DNA from: a bacterium
GTDB taxonomy: Bacteria > Armatimonadota > Zipacnadia > Zipacnadales > Zipacnadaceae
Length of the DNA: 21,118 nt
Direction of reading: 5' to 3'
Assembly: GCA_030603495.1 (NCBI GenBank)
Contig: JAUVXR010000039.1
Span: forward strand, 1 to 21,118
Every line of letters begins with the position of its first letter. Positions within the stretch are counted from its first letter, which is position 1. Below the pieces are notes generated by a model. That model made no database searches and was not told where the DNA came from. It saw only the letters and a list, made by a program, of their open reading frames with translations. Shown piece after piece: positions 6,373 through 20,310 of the stretch. A program made the position numbers and the translations under genes.

Positions 6373-7416
6373 GTGTTTTTCCCTGTAGCTGAGGTTAGCA
6401 TAGCTGTATGGTACTTGGTGGGTATTGGCTTTGCGGTAGGGGTATGTGGCGGCTTCTGGGGAATGGGTGGCGGCTGGATAACCACGCCCGCTCTTTACGC
6501 ACTCGGCATCCCGATGAACATCGCCGTGGGCACCGGCTTAGCCCAGATGGTCGGCCAGTCCGTGGTCGCCACCATTTGGCACAGCAGGTTCGGCAATGTA
6601 TCGTTTCGAGTGGCAGCGATAATGATCCCCGGTACCATACTCGGTGTCGAAATCGGCGCACGCATTATGGAGCATCTCAAAGCAGCGGGGCAGGCCCACG
6701 TTGATGAGGTAATTAGCATTCTGTACGTCATTCTGCTCAGTGCTCTGGCCATCTACATCGTTCTGGAGTCTGTCCAGTCTCAGCGGTCGCTTCGCCGTGA
6801 GCGCCAACTGATGGCCCAAGACGGGGCCAAACCACCCGCTCAGAGTGCTGATGTCCCAGACCACGTCAGCTTTGACCTGGCCAGGCGACTGCAGTACCTG
6901 CGTATCCCCCCTATGGTCTCCTGCCCGCTGCTGCGCGTCGAGAGCATTTCGTTTTGGGTCGTTTTCGTCGCGGCTGCGTTAACGGGTATCCTGGCAGGCC
7001 TACTGGGGGTGGGCGGCGGCTTTCTGCGCGTGCCGATGCTTGTCTACCTCATCGGCTGCCCCACACATGTTGCGGTTGGCACCGACCTATTTGCCATCAT
7101 CATCTCCGGCAGCTACGGCTCCTTCACGCATGCACTGAAGGGCAACGTAGACCTGATGATTGCGCTCGTCATGCTACTGGGCGCTTTATTCGGCGCGCAA
7201 ATCGGTAGCTTCGCTACGCGCTATGTCCAAGGGGTCCAGCTCCGGGCCCTGTTCGGCGCCGCCCTGATGGCGGCGACCGCTTCCCTCATCTTCAAGAGTT
7301 TCCTTAACATGCCCCAGTTGGCTGCCGTTCTGATCATCGGCATGGCTGCCCTGATGGCCGCAATCATCATCGGGCTGCTTATTCGCGGCGTAATCCGTAG
7401 TACTTCGCCTTCCTAG
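6373..7416 (+). CDS. TauE/SafE-family (DUF81) sulfite/anion exporter permease
   Basis: The 347-residue integral membrane protein shows the internal duplication typical of the family. The first half carries GFAVGVCGGFWGMGGGW (about 19-35) followed by TTPALYALGIP and AVGTGLAQM. The second half carries GILAGLLGVGGGFLRVP (about 204-221) followed by a CPTHVAVGTDLF segment. About eight spans are expected, with a charged cytoplasmic loop near residues 135-180. Family members export sulfite, sulfoacetate and related organosulfur anions, or are of unknown substrate. A S1 sulfatase further downstream makes a sulfur-anion role tempting but unproven. The gene starts at GTG with a strong ribosome site and follows a 55-residue membrane protein closely. 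Confidence 0.9.
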   Translation: MFFPVAEVSIAVWYLVGIGFAVGVCGGFWGMGGGWITTPALYALGIPMNIAVGTGLAQMVGQSVVATIWHSRFGNVSFRVAAIMIPGTILGVEIGARIMEHLKAAGQAHVDEVISILYVILLSALAIYIVLESVQSQRSLRRERQLMAQDGAKPPAQSADVPDHVSFDLARRLQYLRIPPMVSCPLLRVESISFWVVFVAAALTGILAGLLGVGGGFLRVPMLVYLIGCPTHVAVGTDLFAIIISGSYGSFTHALKGNVDLMIALVMLLGALFGAQIGSFATRYVQGVQLRALFGAALMAATASLIFKSFLNMPQLAAVLIIGMAALMAAIIIGLLIRGVIRSTSPS

Positions 7417-12326: not shown

Positions 12327-13736
12327 ATGCGTAGGCCCAATGTATTGTTCATAATGTCAGACGACCACGGCGCCCAGGCGATGAGTTGCTACGGCAGCCG
12401 GATCAACGAAACGCCCCATATTGATCGCATCGCCCAGGGGGGCGTCCGCTTTGACAACTGCTTCTGTACGAATTCGATCTGCACGCCGAGCCGGGCCACG
12501 ATCCTGACCGGCAAACACAGTCACATAAACGGCGTGCGCTGCCTGGCACCCTTCGACTGGATGGACTGCCGGCAGTGGAGCTTCCCCAGAGATTTGCAGA
12601 GGGCGGGATACCAGACGGCGGTCATCGGCAAGTGGCACCTGGGCCACGGCGGCGTGAGCGATCCCCAGGGATTCGACTACTGGAACGTGCTGCCGGGCCA
12701 GGGCCTGTACCACAATCCCGAGTTCATAGAAATGGGCGAACAGAAGATCATGCCGGGCTATGCCACCGACCTGATCACCGATATGTGCCTGGACTGGCTC
12801 GAGCACAGGTCGAAGGAACGGCCCTTTTGCCTGTTGTGTCATCACAAAGCTCCGCATCGGCGCTGGGAACCTGACGCGAAGCACGCCCAGATGTATGAGG
12901 ACATCGAGATTCCCGAGCCGGACAACTTCAACGACGACTACGCCAACCGGGCCGGTGCGGCCGCGGCGGCGACGATGAGGATTGAGCGGGACCTGCGTCC
13001 GGATGACCTCAAACAAGATCCGCCACCAGGCCTATCACCGCAAGAGCTGAAGAGATGGAAATATCAGCGGTATATCAAAGACTATCTGCGCTGCGTTGCT
13101 TCGATTGACGATAATGTCGGCCGCATGCTGGATTACCTGGCTGACAAAGGGCTGGAGGAAGATACCATCGTCATCTATACCTCCGACCAGGGCTTCTTCC
13201 TCGGCGAGCACGGCTGGTTCGACAAGCGCTTTATGTACGAAGAGTCGCTGCGTATGCCGCTGGTGGTGCGCTACCCGCAAGAAATCCAACCCGGTACGGT
13301 TAACGACGAGATCGCTCTGAATAATGACTTCGCGCCGACGTTCCTCGACTACGCCGGTCTTGACATTCCCGACGACCTTCAGGGCCGCAGCATCCGTCCG
13401 CTCCTGCAGGGAAGGACTCCCCAGCACTGGCAGACGTCAATGTACTACCGCTACTGGATGCATCTGGGCGGCGGCCATACGGTCTGTGCGCACTACGGCG
13501 TGCGGACCAAGCGCTACAAGCTGATCTACTACTACGGGGAGGCGCTGGACGCACCGGGCGCAGTAGATGAGCCCAGGTCGCCAGAGTGGGAGCTGTTCGA
13601 CCTGGACAATGACCCGATGGAGATGCACAGCGTCTACGACGATCCGGCCTACGCCGAGGCCGTCAAGGAACTGAAAGCCGAGCTGGCCCGCCTCCGCGAT
13701 GAGGTCAAGGATGACAGCGCGCCGTGGACGGAGTAG
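12327..13736 (+). CDS. Class I (S1) formylglycine-dependent sulfatase
   Basis: The 469-residue protein hydrolyses sulfate esters, most likely on a glycan. The N-terminal metal-binding motif is NVLFIMSDDHG (D12, D13). The sulfatase signature CTPSRATILTGKHSH holds C52, which a formylglycine-generating enzyme must convert to formylglycine, with R56 and K63. GKWHLGHGG gives K102 and H104. The second metal site is TSDQGFFLGEHGWFDKR (D287, Q288, K300), with Gln where many sulfatases have Asn or His. The C-terminal part has the usual FDLDNDPMEMHSVYDDP segment. The cysteine-type motif needs an FGE, which is not in this window. No signal peptide is visible, so a cytoplasmic role on imported oligosaccharides is likely unless the start is misread; AAGG at 12317-12320 supports this start. 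The exact S1 subfamily and substrate are not resolved. Confidence 0.93.
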   Translation: MRRPNVLFIMSDDHGAQAMSCYGSRINETPHIDRIAQGGVRFDNCFCTNSICTPSRATILTGKHSHINGVRCLAPFDWMDCRQWSFPRDLQRAGYQTAVIGKWHLGHGGVSDPQGFDYWNVLPGQGLYHNPEFIEMGEQKIMPGYATDLITDMCLDWLEHRSKERPFCLLCHHKAPHRRWEPDAKHAQMYEDIEIPEPDNFNDDYANRAGAAAAATMRIERDLRPDDLKQDPPPGLSPQELKRWKYQRYIKDYLRCVASIDDNVGRMLDYLADKGLEEDTIVIYTSDQGFFLGEHGWFDKRFMYEESLRMPLVVRYPQEIQPGTVNDEIALNNDFAPTFLDYAGLDIPDDLQGRSIRPLLQGRTPQHWQTSMYYRYWMHLGGGHTVCAHYGVRTKRYKLIYYYGEALDAPGAVDEPRSPEWELFDLDNDPMEMHSVYDDPAYAEAVKELKAELARLRDEVKDDSAPWTE

Positions 13737-13841: not shown

Positions 13842-14891
13842 TTACGGAGGTGAGTTGGACTCCTCGAAGTCCATCCCATGCGTAGGTTTGACCACGGCGA
13901 AGCGGTAACCTGCTTCTTCCAGGGCTTGGCCGACGTGCTCGACCCGTTCGGGGTCCTCATATATTCCTACGATTGCGCCACCAGACCCGGGGAACTTGGC
14001 CGGCAGCCCATGTCGGCGAGCGATCTGAATCATCTCCAGATTCGCTGCCCCGATGGCCTTATCACCATATAGCTCGCGGCGCAGGTCAAAGTTCTTATCC
14101 ATCAATTCACCCAGGGTCCGGAAATCGCCTCGCGCCAGCACGGCACGGCCCTGTTCAGCATGATCGGCAAGCTGGCTCATCCCCGCAATGACCTCGGGGT
14201 CACCTGCGTCGTACCGGAACCGCATCGGATTATGAGCCTCGCCGGAGGTAACCGTCGAATGCGGGTTCCAGGCGATGTACATCGGCGGCAGCAGCTCCAG
14301 AGGTATAGGCTCGTAGCGACCGTGATCATGCTGCTCCATATAGCCGGGGTCGAAGTCCATATATACGGCCCCACCATAGACCTGAACGACGCGGTCCTGA
14401 AGACCGGCCTGGATACCGAGCTCCTCAGTTTCCACAGATAGCACCAGGTGGGGCTGAAAATGCCGGGGAATGTCATCATCGGTCAGCCCATAGAACTCCA
14501 TCAGCGCTTGGATAGTGGCGGTGACAATGGCACTGGAGCCGGCCAGCCCGACCTGGCGGGGGATATTGGTGTCATACTCGATGGTGAAGCAGTCGTCGGT
14601 AAGAGGTATACCGTGTTCACAGCAGTAGTCGTGGAACCGCTTGCAGGCCGCGTACACCAGGCGGATACCGCCGTGGTAGCCGTCGCGGGAGGCGACCCGG
14701 GCCAGATTGTCGAAGCTGCTGAAGCTAGAGGGGTCGAAGTGGCGATGCGGGACAATCCGGAGTTCGGTACTTTCGGATATCGCGATGGAGGCCCCGAAGT
14801 TCTCGATCATTGCCGCGATAGTCTTGCCCCCGAACCCATCGGAGGGGTTACCCAGCAATCCGACGCGCGAGCCGACCTGTTTGCGAATCAC
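13842..14891 (-). CDS. GHMP-family sugar kinase, glucuronokinase-like
   Basis: About 349 residues from a GTG at 14891; the open frame extends to a TTG at 14933, but family proteins begin about ten residues before the GLLGNPSDG motif, which favours the GTG. Key motifs (GTG numbering) are RVGLLGNPSDGFGGKT (about 9-24), the GHMP ATP loop NIPRQVGLAGSSAIVTA (about 109-125), GIQAGLQDRVVQVYGG with the likely catalytic D166, and PGSGGAIVGIYEDP near the C terminus. The GNPSDG start with the NIPRQ-GL-GSSAI loop matches plant glucuronokinase, which makes glucuronic acid 1-phosphate from glucuronate and ATP, and its bacterial relatives. Cytoplasmic. It is convergent with the sulfatase, 105 bases away, and would handle uronic acid released by the neighbouring enzymes. 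The exact sugar (glucuronate, galacturonate or other) is an inference. Confidence 0.82.
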   Translation of the reverse strand: MIRKQVGSRVGLLGNPSDGFGGKTIAAMIENFGASIAISESTELRIVPHRHFDPSSFSSFDNLARVASRDGYHGGIRLVYAACKRFHDYCCEHGIPLTDDCFTIEYDTNIPRQVGLAGSSAIVTATIQALMEFYGLTDDDIPRHFQPHLVLSVETEELGIQAGLQDRVVQVYGGAVYMDFDPGYMEQHDHGRYEPIPLELLPPMYIAWNPHSTVTSGEAHNPMRFRYDAGDPEVIAGMSQLADHAEQGRAVLARGDFRTLGELMDKNFDLRRELYGDKAIGAANLEMIQIARRHGLPAKFPGSGGAIVGIYEDPERVEHVGQALEEAGYRFAVVKPTHGMDFEESNSPP

Positions 14892-15227: not shown

Positions 15228-18200
15228 ATGACTACTTCCCACTATAACGCCCGTAGAAAAGCGGGCAACTGGTCTCTATCAGGAGCTACTCTGGTGCTCT
15301 CGGGCCAGGCCAACGAGATTATGAAACTCGCCGCGGGAGAACTCTCCCGATATCTGTACCTGCTCACCGGCAAACTCAGTCCGGTAGCGAGCCGCCTGCC
15401 AGAATTGGGCACTGCGATCATTCTCGATCATAGTATAGCCTCGTCATTGGGGGTATCCGTAGATCCGGCTGTCGTAGGCGACCAGGGCTACTGCTTAGCG
15501 ACCGTACAGCAGGACCGCCGGCGCTACCTGGTCATCACCGCCACTCAGCCGGTGGGGATTCTTTACGGGGTCTATGGCTTGCTGGAGGAGCTAGGCATGG
15601 GCTTCTACGCGGGCGGGGATACCTTCCCTGAGCTGCCTACGCGGGCGGAGATACCAAGCGACCTGGATCGCTATGACCGTCCGGCCTTCGAAGTGCGGGG
15701 CAATCTGCTATGGTGCAATTTCCTGTGCGGGTTGACTGACTGGGGCCTGGACGACTACAAGTTCTATTTTGACCAACTGGCCCGCATGCGCTGCAACATG
15801 CTGCTAATCCATTGGTATGACTCTGAGCCGACCGCAGCCTATGAGGTCAACGGGGAGTATCTGGCCGGTGGCATCACCCCCAATGCTCTGACCAAACCAT
15901 GGGGAGCATTGGCTGCCTTACGTGCGTCGGAGTTCTATTTTGGCACGGGGCGCTACTTTGACCAAGAGTTCTTCACCAGCCCGATGGGGGAGAACAGTCC
16001 TGATTTGCTTACCGAAATCAAGCGTAGCGAGGCTGTCTTTAGTGAGGCGACGCGCTACGCCCGGCAGTGTGGGGTGAAAGTGGCGGCGGGTTTTGAGGCG
16101 CCACGGGGGGATCCTACTAATCCACGTGTGGTAGAGAACTTCAAGGCCCGTATCCGCCAATTCCTGGAGCGCAATCCCGCCATCACGCACTTTGCTCTCT
16201 GGCAGCATGAGGCCGGAGGATGCACCGGGACGACGCCTCCGCCTGCGGCCTCCGAGGCTGCCCGTCTCTTTGACCAGCAGAAGGAACTGTTCACCTACTT
16301 GGGTACACCGCGCCGGGTGTGGGAGGCCATCCGCTTCGGGCGCTTCGCCGCGATAGCGGCGGACCTTGTGGCGGCAGAAGCTCCAGGCCTGCCCCTAGTG
16401 GTAGTGGGCTGGGGTGGAGATCGCTGGATGCGTTTTGCTGACTATTGTCTGGGCTATGACAAGATCCTGCCTGCGCACGTCGCCTTTACCTGCCATGACA
16501 ACATTGATCCTTCCTTTGGTCCTAACGTGAGCACGGCCTGGGGAGAGCTCCCGCCAGAGCGTGAACGCTGGGCCATTACCTGGGCCGAGGACGACCTTGC
16601 TGATTGCTGGGCGCGCCGACCGAACGTGGAATCTTTCAGTAAACTCACCCCCGATGCCCTGCAAAAGGGTTGCCAGGGCCTGCTGAACCTGCAATGGCGT
16701 ACCCGTGACGTGGAGGAGGAGAATGCTCACACCGCCCAATTCGCTTGGGACACTAGCCTCACGCCTGAAGAGTTTTACTGTAAGCTAGCTCGAGATTACT
16801 TCGGCCCCGACCAGGAAGAGCGGGTAGGCAAGCACCTGGCTGTCCTCCAGCGTCTGGGCTCACGCTGGACAGGGGTACACGGTAGCGTCGAGTGTGGACG
16901 CATGTGCTGGACGGGCTGGGCGCCTCATTTCCCATTTGAACTCGATGAAAAGACCCCTACGTATCTCCTGGCCAAGGCAGAGAAAGCGGCGGAGATACTC
17001 TCTGAGATACCTCCTGAGGGCGAGGGCGGTGAAGCGGGCGCATTTCACTTGCGACGGGTAGGTGAGGAGCTAGAAGACATCGAGCATGACGACACACGCC
17101 CAGGTGTACAGGTAATGAAGCAGGTGGCCAAGCGCCTGCGGAAGCTTGCCGGTGAAACGGCCAAGCGACGCCTGCGCGCAGCACTCATCGAGATTGAGGA
17201 ACAAGTCTGGGCGTTGCGTGAGCGGCTCGTGGTATATGGGATGACTACTCGCTCTTACCGAGCTGTTGATAGCTTTCTGATTGCGATCCATCACCTGCAG
17301 CGTAATGCGGGGGCGAAGAGTCATTTCGCCACGCTCCGCGGCATCCGCCGGGACCTGGAGAAGCTACGCGAGCAGTATCTGACTGAGAAACGCCTCGCAC
17401 GCCTGGAGCGGCTGGACTTCCTGGTCGCCACCATGGACTTTGTCCTGAACTTCGACTCTGCAGTGATGCTGCTGGCTGACGGAGAACGGATTGACCAGGC
17501 CCTGGAGGCAGCTGCGCAGGCGCGGGAGGCGGGTGAGAACACATGTGCGGCAGAGATCGTTGCCCAGGCCTACGGGGAGTTGGTAGGAGCGGGCATGCAG
17601 CAAGCGCTGCAGGCTTACACCCGCAAGCTTACGACTCGCTGTGAGTTCGGCGTGCTGGCCACGCTCAATGTCAAGGCTCTCCCGTTGTATTGGGAGACGA
17701 TTGGACGACTGGAGGAATTCCTGCCCGCAGTACCGCCACGAGAGGTACAGGCTCGTGGCCAGGCCCAGGAGGTGTGGCTCTCCTGGCAGCCCTCCCCGCG
17801 CACCGCTGGTCACCATCTCTACCGGCGGCCTGCTGAAGGCGGCCGCTGGCGCCGGATTAACAAAGAGCTGATGGACGCGAAATGCCGCATGTTCGTGGAT
17901 CGTCCCGTTAAGCCCGCAGTGTACGAATATGCCGTGACCGCACTTGCCGAGTGCGGCTGGGAGAGCCCGAGGTCGCACTTGGGGCGAGCTACCTGCGGAC
18001 CGCTGCAGGCTGGGCCTGAGCTGGTAGCTTGCAAGCCTTACAGCCACTTAGAGGTCGGCGAGGACCTGACCTTGCGTATAGTGGTTCTCACTGAGCGAGA
18101 GGTAGAGCGGGTAGAGATCGCCTTTCGCAGAGCGGGCGAGCGCTCCTGGCGCCGCGTGCCCATGATCAACTGCTTCCGCTACTCGTATCGGGGGACAGTA

Positions 18201-18347
18201 CCGGCTATTGAGATAGAGCCGGGGACGCTGGAGTTCTACGTGGAGGCGGTAGACAGTGAGGGCAATTCGTCGGTGTGGCCGGAGTCTGCCGCCGTAGGCT
18301 TGCCCTGGAGCATCTCGGTGAACTGGTCCGTACACGACGCCGGGTAG
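15228..18347 (+). CDS. Alpha-glucuronidase-like glycoside hydrolase candidate with FN3/Ig-like C-terminal domains
   Basis: The 1039-residue protein starts with a GH67-N/GH115-like domain: AAGELSRYLYLLTG, then LVITATQPVGILYGVYGLLEE and a GGDTFPELP segment. A TIM-barrel-like region follows (about 155-560) with candidate active-site stretches WQHEAGG (E328), VVGWGGDRW (D398) and TWAEDDLADCW. The segment TAQFAWDTSLTPEEFYCKLA, with YFG after it, is common in this superfamily (GH67, GH115, DUF4838/GH163 relatives). A helical part (about 570-830) is followed by an FN3-like domain (about 838-925) and an Ig-like domain (about 945-1035). No signal peptide is visible, which is odd for a protein with FN3-like modules. 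The likely role is release of a uronic acid or hexosamine from oligosaccharides; the family is not settled. The start has a modest GAGCAGG site at 15211-15217. Confidence 0.65.
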   Translation: MTTSHYNARRKAGNWSLSGATLVLSGQANEIMKLAAGELSRYLYLLTGKLSPVASRLPELGTAIILDHSIASSLGVSVDPAVVGDQGYCLATVQQDRRRYLVITATQPVGILYGVYGLLEELGMGFYAGGDTFPELPTRAEIPSDLDRYDRPAFEVRGNLLWCNFLCGLTDWGLDDYKFYFDQLARMRCNMLLIHWYDSEPTAAYEVNGEYLAGGITPNALTKPWGALAALRASEFYFGTGRYFDQEFFTSPMGENSPDLLTEIKRSEAVFSEATRYARQCGVKVAAGFEAPRGDPTNPRVVENFKARIRQFLERNPAITHFALWQHEAGGCTGTTPPPAASEAARLFDQQKELFTYLGTPRRVWEAIRFGRFAAIAADLVAAEAPGLPLVVVGWGGDRWMRFADYCLGYDKILPAHVAFTCHDNIDPSFGPNVSTAWGELPPERERWAITWAEDDLADCWARRPNVESFSKLTPDALQKGCQGLLNLQWRTRDVEEENAHTAQFAWDTSLTPEEFYCKLARDYFGPDQEERVGKHLAVLQRLGSRWTGVHGSVECGRMCWTGWAPHFPFELDEKTPTYLLAKAEKAAEILSEIPPEGEGGEAGAFHLRRVGEELEDIEHDDTRPGVQVMKQVAKRLRKLAGETAKRRLRAALIEIEEQVWALRERLVVYGMTTRSYRAVDSFLIAIHHLQRNAGAKSHFATLRGIRRDLEKLREQYLTEKRLARLERLDFLVATMDFVLNFDSAVMLLADGERIDQALEAAAQAREAGENTCAAEIVAQAYGELVGAGMQQALQAYTRKLTTRCEFGVLATLNVKALPLYWETIGRLEEFLPAVPPREVQARGQAQEVWLSWQPSPRTAGHHLYRRPAEGGRWRRINKELMDAKCRMFVDRPVKPAVYEYAVTALAECGWESPRSHLGRATCGPLQAGPELVACKPYSHLEVGEDLTLRIVVLTEREVERVEIAFRRAGERSWRRVPMINCFRYSYRGTVPAIEIEPGTLEFYVEAVDSEGNSSVWPESAAVGLPWSISVNWSVHDAG

Positions 18348-19977: not shown

Positions 19978-20310
19978 TTAGTCACTATGAAACACTTCTT
20001 CCATCTCGGCCCACCACTCGCCGTCTTCCTCGCGCGACTTGCCGTCCAGGGGCACCTGCATCGGGTCCATCCACTTCCACCATTCGTGCGTCTTGGGGTT
20101 AGCGGCGATCTTGGCCATATCCGCTTCATAGTCATCGCCGACGTACTCGTAATAGCTGAAAAGCATGCCGTCATGGTAGAAGATAGTGTAGTTGCGGATG
20201 TTGGCCTCCTTGATCATCGCCAGGACCTCCGGCCAGACATTACGATGGGCTTCCTTGTACTCTTCCAGCCGCTCGGGTTTCAGGCCGATTATCATACCGT
20301 AACGCTTCAC
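19978..20310 (-). CDS. rhaM: L-rhamnose mutarotase
   Basis: The 110-residue protein interconverts the alpha and beta anomers of L-rhamnose, feeding rhamnose isomerase in the cytoplasm. It aligns without gaps to the E. coli RhaM active site: Y18 and H22 in EYKEAHRNVWPEV, and W76/W77 in NPKTHEWWKWMDP. IRNYTIFYHDGMLFSYYEY is the central strand pair. Length is close to the usual ~104 residues, with a short acidic tail. The start is GTG 20310-20308, with an AGGAGG ribosome site (20319-20324) inside the end of the upstream beta-helix gene, whose TGA is three bases before the GTG. It is the middle gene of a minus-strand cluster. No rhamnose isomerase or kinase is visible here. Confidence 0.93.
   Translation of the reverse strand: MKRYGMIIGLKPERLEEYKEAHRNVWPEVLAMIKEANIRNYTIFYHDGMLFSYYEYVGDDYEADMAKIAANPKTHEWWKWMDPMQVPLDGKSREEDGEWWAEMEEVFHSD

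What the first reader, a model, noticed from the sequence alone, without database searches (positions are those of the whole stretch)
13842..14891. Glucuronokinase-like kinase in a lyase/sulfatase locus
Bacteria usually feed glucuronate through isomerase and KDG routes. A plant-like glucuronokinase beside a uronic-acid lyase, a sulfatase and an alpha-glucuronidase-like protein suggests direct phosphorylation to a 1-phosphate, which could supply UDP-glucuronate or a phosphorolytic-type salvage branch.
Basis: partly seen in the sequence, partly recalled or inferred. Interest (0 to 1): 0.6.

Follow-up and report, generated by a model that had tools for sequence, protein, structure and literature searches.

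The report
Bacterial plant-type glucuronokinase, UDP-glucuronate salvage
An uncultured bacterium (Armatimonadota) carries a plant-like enzyme that probably phosphorylates glucuronic acid so that it can be recycled into the sugar donor UDP-glucuronic acid, and its genome lacks the usual enzyme for making that donor.

Summary
The gene is real: a 349-aa GHMP sugar kinase at 13842-14891, but on the MINUS strand, convergent with the sulfatase and divergent from the GH67N-like gene, so it is not in an operon with them. Congeners do not keep that neighbourhood. It belongs to a well-bounded family (44-80% identical) found in hundreds of bacterial species, distinct from heptose, fucose and galactose kinases, and matches the Arabidopsis glucuronokinase as I recall it (43%; memory-based lead). 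In several phyla the kinase is tightly paired with a ~290-aa GalU-like uridylyltransferase, a two-gene counterpart of the zebrafish glucuronokinase fusion. In the window's own clade it sits just downstream of UDP-glucuronate decarboxylase (UXS). The window's genome (93.5% complete) has UXS, two kinase copies and a GalU-like gene, but no UDP-glucose dehydrogenase, MIOX, UxaC or UxuA. Best reading: glucuronate -> glucuronate-1-P -> UDP-glucuronate (-> UDP-xylose), salvage for glycan synthesis, not catabolism tied to the lyase/sulfatase locus. The substrate is inferred, not shown. A known enzyme kind in a bacterial setting that no held paper describes.

The parts
13842..14891 (-). GHMP sugar kinase, glucuronokinase-like (349 aa, GTG start)
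   Evidence: Open frame; Pfam GHMP N and C; AlphaFold model pLDDT 93.8, best VIA-align matches galactokinases Z about 32
14826..14852 (-). N-terminal motif GNPSDGFGG (residues 14-22), signature of the family
   Evidence: G14 N15 P16 S17 D18 G19 G22 invariant in 21 relatives; G14 N15 P16 D18 G22 invariant in 56
14529..14549 (-). GHMP phosphate-binding loop GLAGSSA (residues 115-121)
   Evidence: G115, G118, S119 invariant in 56 sequences
14388..14405 (-). GLQDRV motif (residues 163-168) with the predicted catalytic base D166
   Evidence: G163 and D166 invariant in 56 sequences; aligns with GGKQDQ of the heptose kinase 3k85; catalytic role from general knowledge of GHMP kinases
12327..13736 (+). 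Neighbour, convergent: sulfatase (context only, not thought to be part of the system)
   Evidence: PF00884 184 bits, SGSH_C 198 bits
15228..18347 (+). Neighbour, divergent: 1039-aa protein with a GH67 N-terminal domain only (context only)
   Evidence: PF03648 26.7 bits; no catalytic domain, no useful PDB match

Best explanation
The gene encodes a bacterial member of the plant/fish glucuronokinase type of GHMP kinases. It most likely uses ATP to phosphorylate free D-glucuronate at C1. A GalU-like uridylyltransferase then turns glucuronate-1-phosphate plus UTP into UDP-glucuronate, which feeds UDP-glucuronate decarboxylase (UDP-xylose) and exopolysaccharide glycosyltransferases. In this organism the route would replace UDP-glucose dehydrogenase (UGDH). 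Shown here: family identity, conserved catalytic motifs, operon pairing with the uridylyltransferase in relatives, adjacency to UXS in the same clade, presence of UXS and absence of UGDH in the own genome. Inferred: the substrate, the product, and that the own-genome GalU-like protein accepts glucuronate-1-phosphate.
For: Family: 44-80% identity across bacteria, own clade supported at SH-aLRT 95. Scores far below the cut-offs of heptose kinase (33.6 vs 600), fucokinase (23 vs 721) and galactokinase (21.6 vs 509) models. Recalled Arabidopsis glucuronokinase is 43% identical to the window protein, up to 52% to others, and lies inside the family (memory-based). Partner: in 34 loci the kinase gene is adjacent on the same strand (from a few bases of overlap to about 100 bp apart) to a ~290-aa GalU-like uridylyltransferase; RefSeq itself annotates such a pair as 'GHMP kinase' + galU in Rufibacter. 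The zebrafish glucuronokinase is fused to a bacterial-type nucleotidyltransferase (PMC3938481). UDP-glucuronate link: UXS (298 bits to UXS1) directly upstream of the kinase in L040, and a 72% identical gene just upstream in L039, both in the window's clade; UGDH next to kinase and uridylyltransferase in G049/L065. Own genome: UXS at G000:C24:98021-98968 (309 bits to UXS1, 129 or less to all else), GalU-like gene at C37, no UGDH by two domains, no MIOX, no UxaC, no UxuA.
Against: No enzyme assay. The window copy itself has no linked uridylyltransferase or UXS; the own-genome paralog, not the window copy, sits in an exopolysaccharide operon. Group 1 kinase alone is not associated with UGDH loss (p = 0.3); only the union with the distant group 2 kinases is (27 of 27 UGDH-less versus 15 of 23 UGDH-positive genomes of at least 85% completeness, naive p = 0.0009, not corrected for ancestry and formed after seeing the data). 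12 kinase-bearing genomes also have UGDH. The source of free glucuronate is unknown. The plant comparison rests on a recalled sequence.
Confidence: 0.7

Rival explanations
1. A sugar-1-kinase of the same family whose substrate is a different sugar or uronic acid (for example galacturonate or a neutral sugar of the exopolysaccharide), still feeding a UDP-sugar.
For: GHMP specificity changes easily; the paralog and many relatives lie in exopolysaccharide clusters with epimerases such as WbpP-like proteins; the GalU-like partner is not specific evidence for glucuronate.
Against: UXS adjacency in the window's clade, UXS without UGDH in the own genome, zebrafish enzyme of the same type strictly specific for glucuronate (PMC3938481).
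Confidence: 0.2
2. A catabolic kinase tied to the lyase/sulfatase locus, phosphorylating uronic acids released there for energy metabolism.
For: Physical proximity in the window; copies of the same clade lie near DUF4838 genes (L036) and a pectic acid lyase (L042).
Against: Opposite strand and single-gene unit; neighbourhood not conserved, with secretin/LptFG in L037/L038; no UxaC or UxuA; no catabolic use of glucuronate-1-phosphate known to me.
Confidence: 0.06
3. The window copy is a redundant or diverging duplicate, with the exopolysaccharide-operon paralog (G000:C56) doing the glucuronokinase job.
For: Two copies 55% identical; the paralog has the biosynthetic context.
Against: Intact frame and all invariant residues; window-type orthologs are retained in several genera at 60-80% identity; clade members next to UXS are of the window type.
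Confidence: 0.1

Closest known systems
Arabidopsis glucuronokinase (AtGLCAK1, EC 2.7.1.43)
   Same: Single-domain GHMP kinase of about 360 aa; recalled sequence 43% identical end to end with the same GNPSD, NIPRQ-GL-GSSAIV, GLQDRV-QVYGG and GSGGA motifs (memory-based)
   Different: Plant uses a broad UDP-sugar pyrophosphorylase (PF01704) and MIOX; neither is in the window's genome
Zebrafish bifunctional glucuronokinase/putative pyrophosphorylase DrGKUP (PMC3938481)
   Same: Kinase coupled to a ~260-300 aa bacterial-type nucleotidyltransferase; strictly glucuronate-specific
   Different: In bacteria the two are separate adjacent genes; in the window's genome they are not adjacent
HddA D-glycero-D-manno-heptose 7-phosphate kinase (3k85, 4n3o)
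   Same: GHMP fold, QD(Q/R) motif; best PDB match by sequence (39.6 bits)
   Different: 24% identity, far below the HddA model cut-off, outside the family in the tree
Galactokinases (1pie, 1s4e, 6gr2)
   Same: Best structural matches, Z about 32 over 300 residues; sugar C1 phosphorylation
   Different: 17-18% identity; galactokinase models not reached

Membership tests
Plant/fish-type glucuronokinase | GHMP_kinases_N and _C domains with GSSA loop and QD catalytic motif | tested here: met
Plant/fish-type glucuronokinase | Full-length homology to a characterised glucuronokinase above that to other GHMP kinases | tested here: inconclusive
   43% to recalled AtGLCAK1 versus 24% to HddA; the recalled sequence agrees with the family consensus against the window at 19 columns and with the window against the consensus at 2, so it is not a copy of the query, but no database copy was available
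Plant/fish-type glucuronokinase | Coupling to a nucleotidyltransferase making UDP-glucuronate | tested here: inconclusive
   An adjacent GalU-like gene is found for the family in 34 loci, but not next to the window copy, and the substrate of the partner is not shown
Plant/fish-type glucuronokinase | ATP-dependent D-glucuronate 1-kinase activity | not testable with these tools
   needs an assay
HddA heptose kinase | NCBIfam NF049969 at or above cut-off 600 bits | tested here: not met
   33.6 bits
Fucokinase (FKP) | NCBIfam NF009948 at or above cut-off 721 bits | tested here: not met
   23.1 bits
Galactokinase | NCBIfam galactokinase equivalogs at cut-off | tested here: not met
   21.6 bits versus 509
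GH67 alpha-glucuronidase (neighbour 15228-18347) | GH67 catalytic domain | tested here: not met
   Only PF03648 N-terminal domain, 26.7 bits
UDP-sugar pyrophosphorylase (PF01704) in the same genome | PF01704 match in G000 | tested here: not met
   none; GalU-like PF00483 protein present instead

The most novel reading that the evidence does not exclude
A whole lineage of Armatimonadota has given up making UDP-glucuronate from UDP-glucose and depends on scavenged glucuronate, through a bacterial glucuronokinase plus GalU-like uridylyltransferase, as its only source of UDP-glucuronate and UDP-xylose; the same two-gene module, widespread in Bacteroidota and found in other phyla, is the prokaryotic counterpart (perhaps the source) of the plant kinase and of the animal kinase-pyrophosphorylase fusion.
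Probability: 0.4. Interest if true: 0.65.

Novelty: new variant of a known kind. Interest (0 to 1): 0.5.

Why it matters
Glucuronokinase is described in the held literature for plants and lower animals; the one paper that discusses bacteria reports only the pyrophosphorylase part there (PMC3938481). Hundreds of bacterial species carry the kinase, called only 'GHMP kinase' in the one RefSeq record seen. If the reading holds, it names that family, explains how genomes with UDP-glucuronate decarboxylase but no UDP-glucose dehydrogenase get their substrate, and supplies the partner uridylyltransferase (whose activity could not be clearly shown for the zebrafish fusion) as a separate protein that can be assayed.

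Tried and rejected
Reading the gene on the + strand (stops). Single-sequence scan of genome contigs found nothing; the alignment scan worked. Search for family motif strings in papers found none; the Arabidopsis cloning paper is not held. The idea that the lyase/sulfatase neighbourhood defines the function was rejected because of strand, lack of conserved synteny and missing GH67 catalytic domain. MIOX-fed pathway rejected for this genome. Isomerase route UxaC/UxuA absent. The PF03721 hit at G000:C1 (30 bits) was rejected as UGDH: partial domain, no PF00984, no NCBIfam match. A first UXS candidate picked by my ORF caller (L195:8282-9223) turned out to be a UDP-glucose 4-epimerase; the real UXS is L195:6022-6969. 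The epimerase near the paralog's ortholog in L051 is WbpP-like, not UXS. Statistical link of group 1 kinase alone with UGDH loss: not significant.

Full report
What is there. The reading frame at 13842-14891 is intact but on the minus strand. Pfam finds GHMP_kinases_N and _C above cut-off. The predicted structure (pLDDT 93.8) is a complete GHMP kinase, with galactokinases, mevalonate kinases and the heptokinase WcbL among the best solved matches (Z up to 32.5). The sulfatase lies tail-to-tail with it and the GH67N-like gene head-to-head, so the kinase is a single-gene unit. The neighbour called alpha-glucuronidase-like has only the GH67 N-terminal domain.

Which family. One clade of relatives, here 'group 1' (44-80% identity to the window), is found across Armatimonadota and in hundreds of other bacterial species: Bacteroidota, Verrucomicrobiota, Planctomycetota, Acidobacteriota, Poribacteria and others. 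A second, distant 'group 2' is about 30% identical. NCBIfam scores for heptose kinase, fucokinase, galactokinase and mevalonate kinase are a small fraction of their cut-offs. No eukaryotic sequence could be fetched, so I used the Arabidopsis glucuronokinase sequence from memory as a lead. It aligns end to end at 43% with the window protein and up to 52% with other members, against 24% for the solved heptose kinase. At columns where the family majority differs from the window, it sides with the family 19 times and with the window twice, so the recollection was not modelled on the query. In a quick maximum-likelihood tree it falls within group 1. This remains a lead, not a test.

What the family works with. 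In 34 loci the kinase gene is next to, and on the same strand as, a ~290-aa uridylyltransferase of the GalU type, mostly within a few tens of bases and sometimes overlapping. Most are Bacteroidota, with single cases in several other phyla. NCBIfam GalU scores of the six tested partners range from 253 to 381 bits against a cut-off of 327, so some may be ordinary GalU and others a diverged form. In the RefSeq record of a Rufibacter plasmid the pair is annotated 'GHMP kinase' and galU. The zebrafish glucuronokinase is fused to a nucleotidyltransferase of bacterial type and is strictly specific for glucuronate (PMC3938481). The bacterial pair looks like the split counterpart of that protein.

Link to UDP-glucuronate. 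In the window's own clade (SH-aLRT 95), L040 has UDP-glucuronate decarboxylase immediately upstream of the kinase (298 bits to UXS1, next other enzyme 115), and L039 has a 72% identical gene just upstream. Both genomes lack UDP-glucose dehydrogenase. In G049 the uridylyltransferase, the kinase and UDP-glucose dehydrogenase are neighbours (L065). The own-genome paralog (55% identical) ends an exopolysaccharide operon with a polysaccharide biosynthesis protein, a priming sugar transferase and an aminotransferase; its orthologs lie in exosortase-type exopolysaccharide clusters.

The own genome. It is 2.67 Mb, 93.5% complete, 0.85% contaminated; named close relatives are Candidatus Zipacnadia / WS1 of Armatimonadota. 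It holds UXS (309 bits to UXS1, 129 or less to anything else), UDP-glucose 4-epimerase and a GalU-like uridylyltransferase. It has no UDP-glucose dehydrogenase by two independent domains, no PF01704 pyrophosphorylase, no MIOX, no UxaC and no UxuA. UXS without UDP-glucose dehydrogenase leaves a gap that a glucuronokinase route would fill. The same combination occurs in G001, G018, G035 and G040, so a missing contig is an unlikely cause in all five.

Limits. Among 61 genomes, group 1 alone is not associated with missing UDP-glucose dehydrogenase (p = 0.3). All 27 genomes of at least 85% completeness that lack the dehydrogenase have a group 1 or group 2 kinase, against 15 of 23 that have it (naive p = 0.0009), but that union was formed after seeing the data and ancestry is not corrected. 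The function of group 2 is unknown; two of its members sit beside a CMP-sugar synthetase-like gene and a NeuB-like gene (L070, L073). The single GalU-like protein of the own genome may also be its ordinary UDP-glucose pyrophosphorylase. The window copy's place next to glycan-degrading genes is not conserved: L037/L038 have secretin and LptF/G neighbours, L036 DUF4838 genes, L042 a pectic acid lyase. A role in collecting glucuronate released by glycan breakdown is possible but not shown.

Verdict. A bacterial glucuronokinase-like kinase, most likely part of UDP-glucuronate salvage for biosynthesis. Known enzyme kind, bacterial variant with a split partner gene, in genomes that lack the usual route. 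No held paper describing a bacterial glucuronokinase was found; papers outside the open library were not searched.

Noticed in passing
G000:C55:24772-24852 (L035, contig end): An 81-base stretch at a contig end encodes 27 residues 85% identical to residues 77-103 of the window kinase, with unrelated sequence upstream; probably an assembly artefact at the contig end or a third partial copy.
   Followed up: partly
L070, L073, L067, L066, L071, L072, L074: Group 2 GHMP kinases (about 30% identical, motif APGRGGIIGNPSD[IM]YGG), in L070/L073 next to CTP_transf_3 and NeuB/AP_endonuc_2 genes; present in all UGDH-less genomes of at least 85% completeness that lack group 1.
   Followed up: partly
window 6373-7416 (+): TauE/SafE sulfite exporter family gene upstream of the lyase and sulfatase genes.
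   Followed up: no
window 19978-20310 (-): L-rhamnose mutarotase (rhaM, 119 bits); the overlapping ORF downstream reads like the start of a uroporphyrinogen-decarboxylase-like gene but gave no Pfam match.
   Followed up: partly
L156, L157 (IMG/VR contigs): Group 1 kinases (52% and 43% identical) on contigs classed as viral; may be phage-carried or misclassified.
   Followed up: no
G049 (L065, L176): One Armatimonadota genome holds MIOX, kinase, GalU-like partner, a UXS-like gene, UxaC and UGDH, that is, both routes to UDP-glucuronate.
   Followed up: partly
L206 (Rufibacter tibetensis plasmid 1, NZ_CP012644.1 131366-133304): The kinase/galU pair is carried on a plasmid predicted to be mobilizable.
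   Followed up: partly
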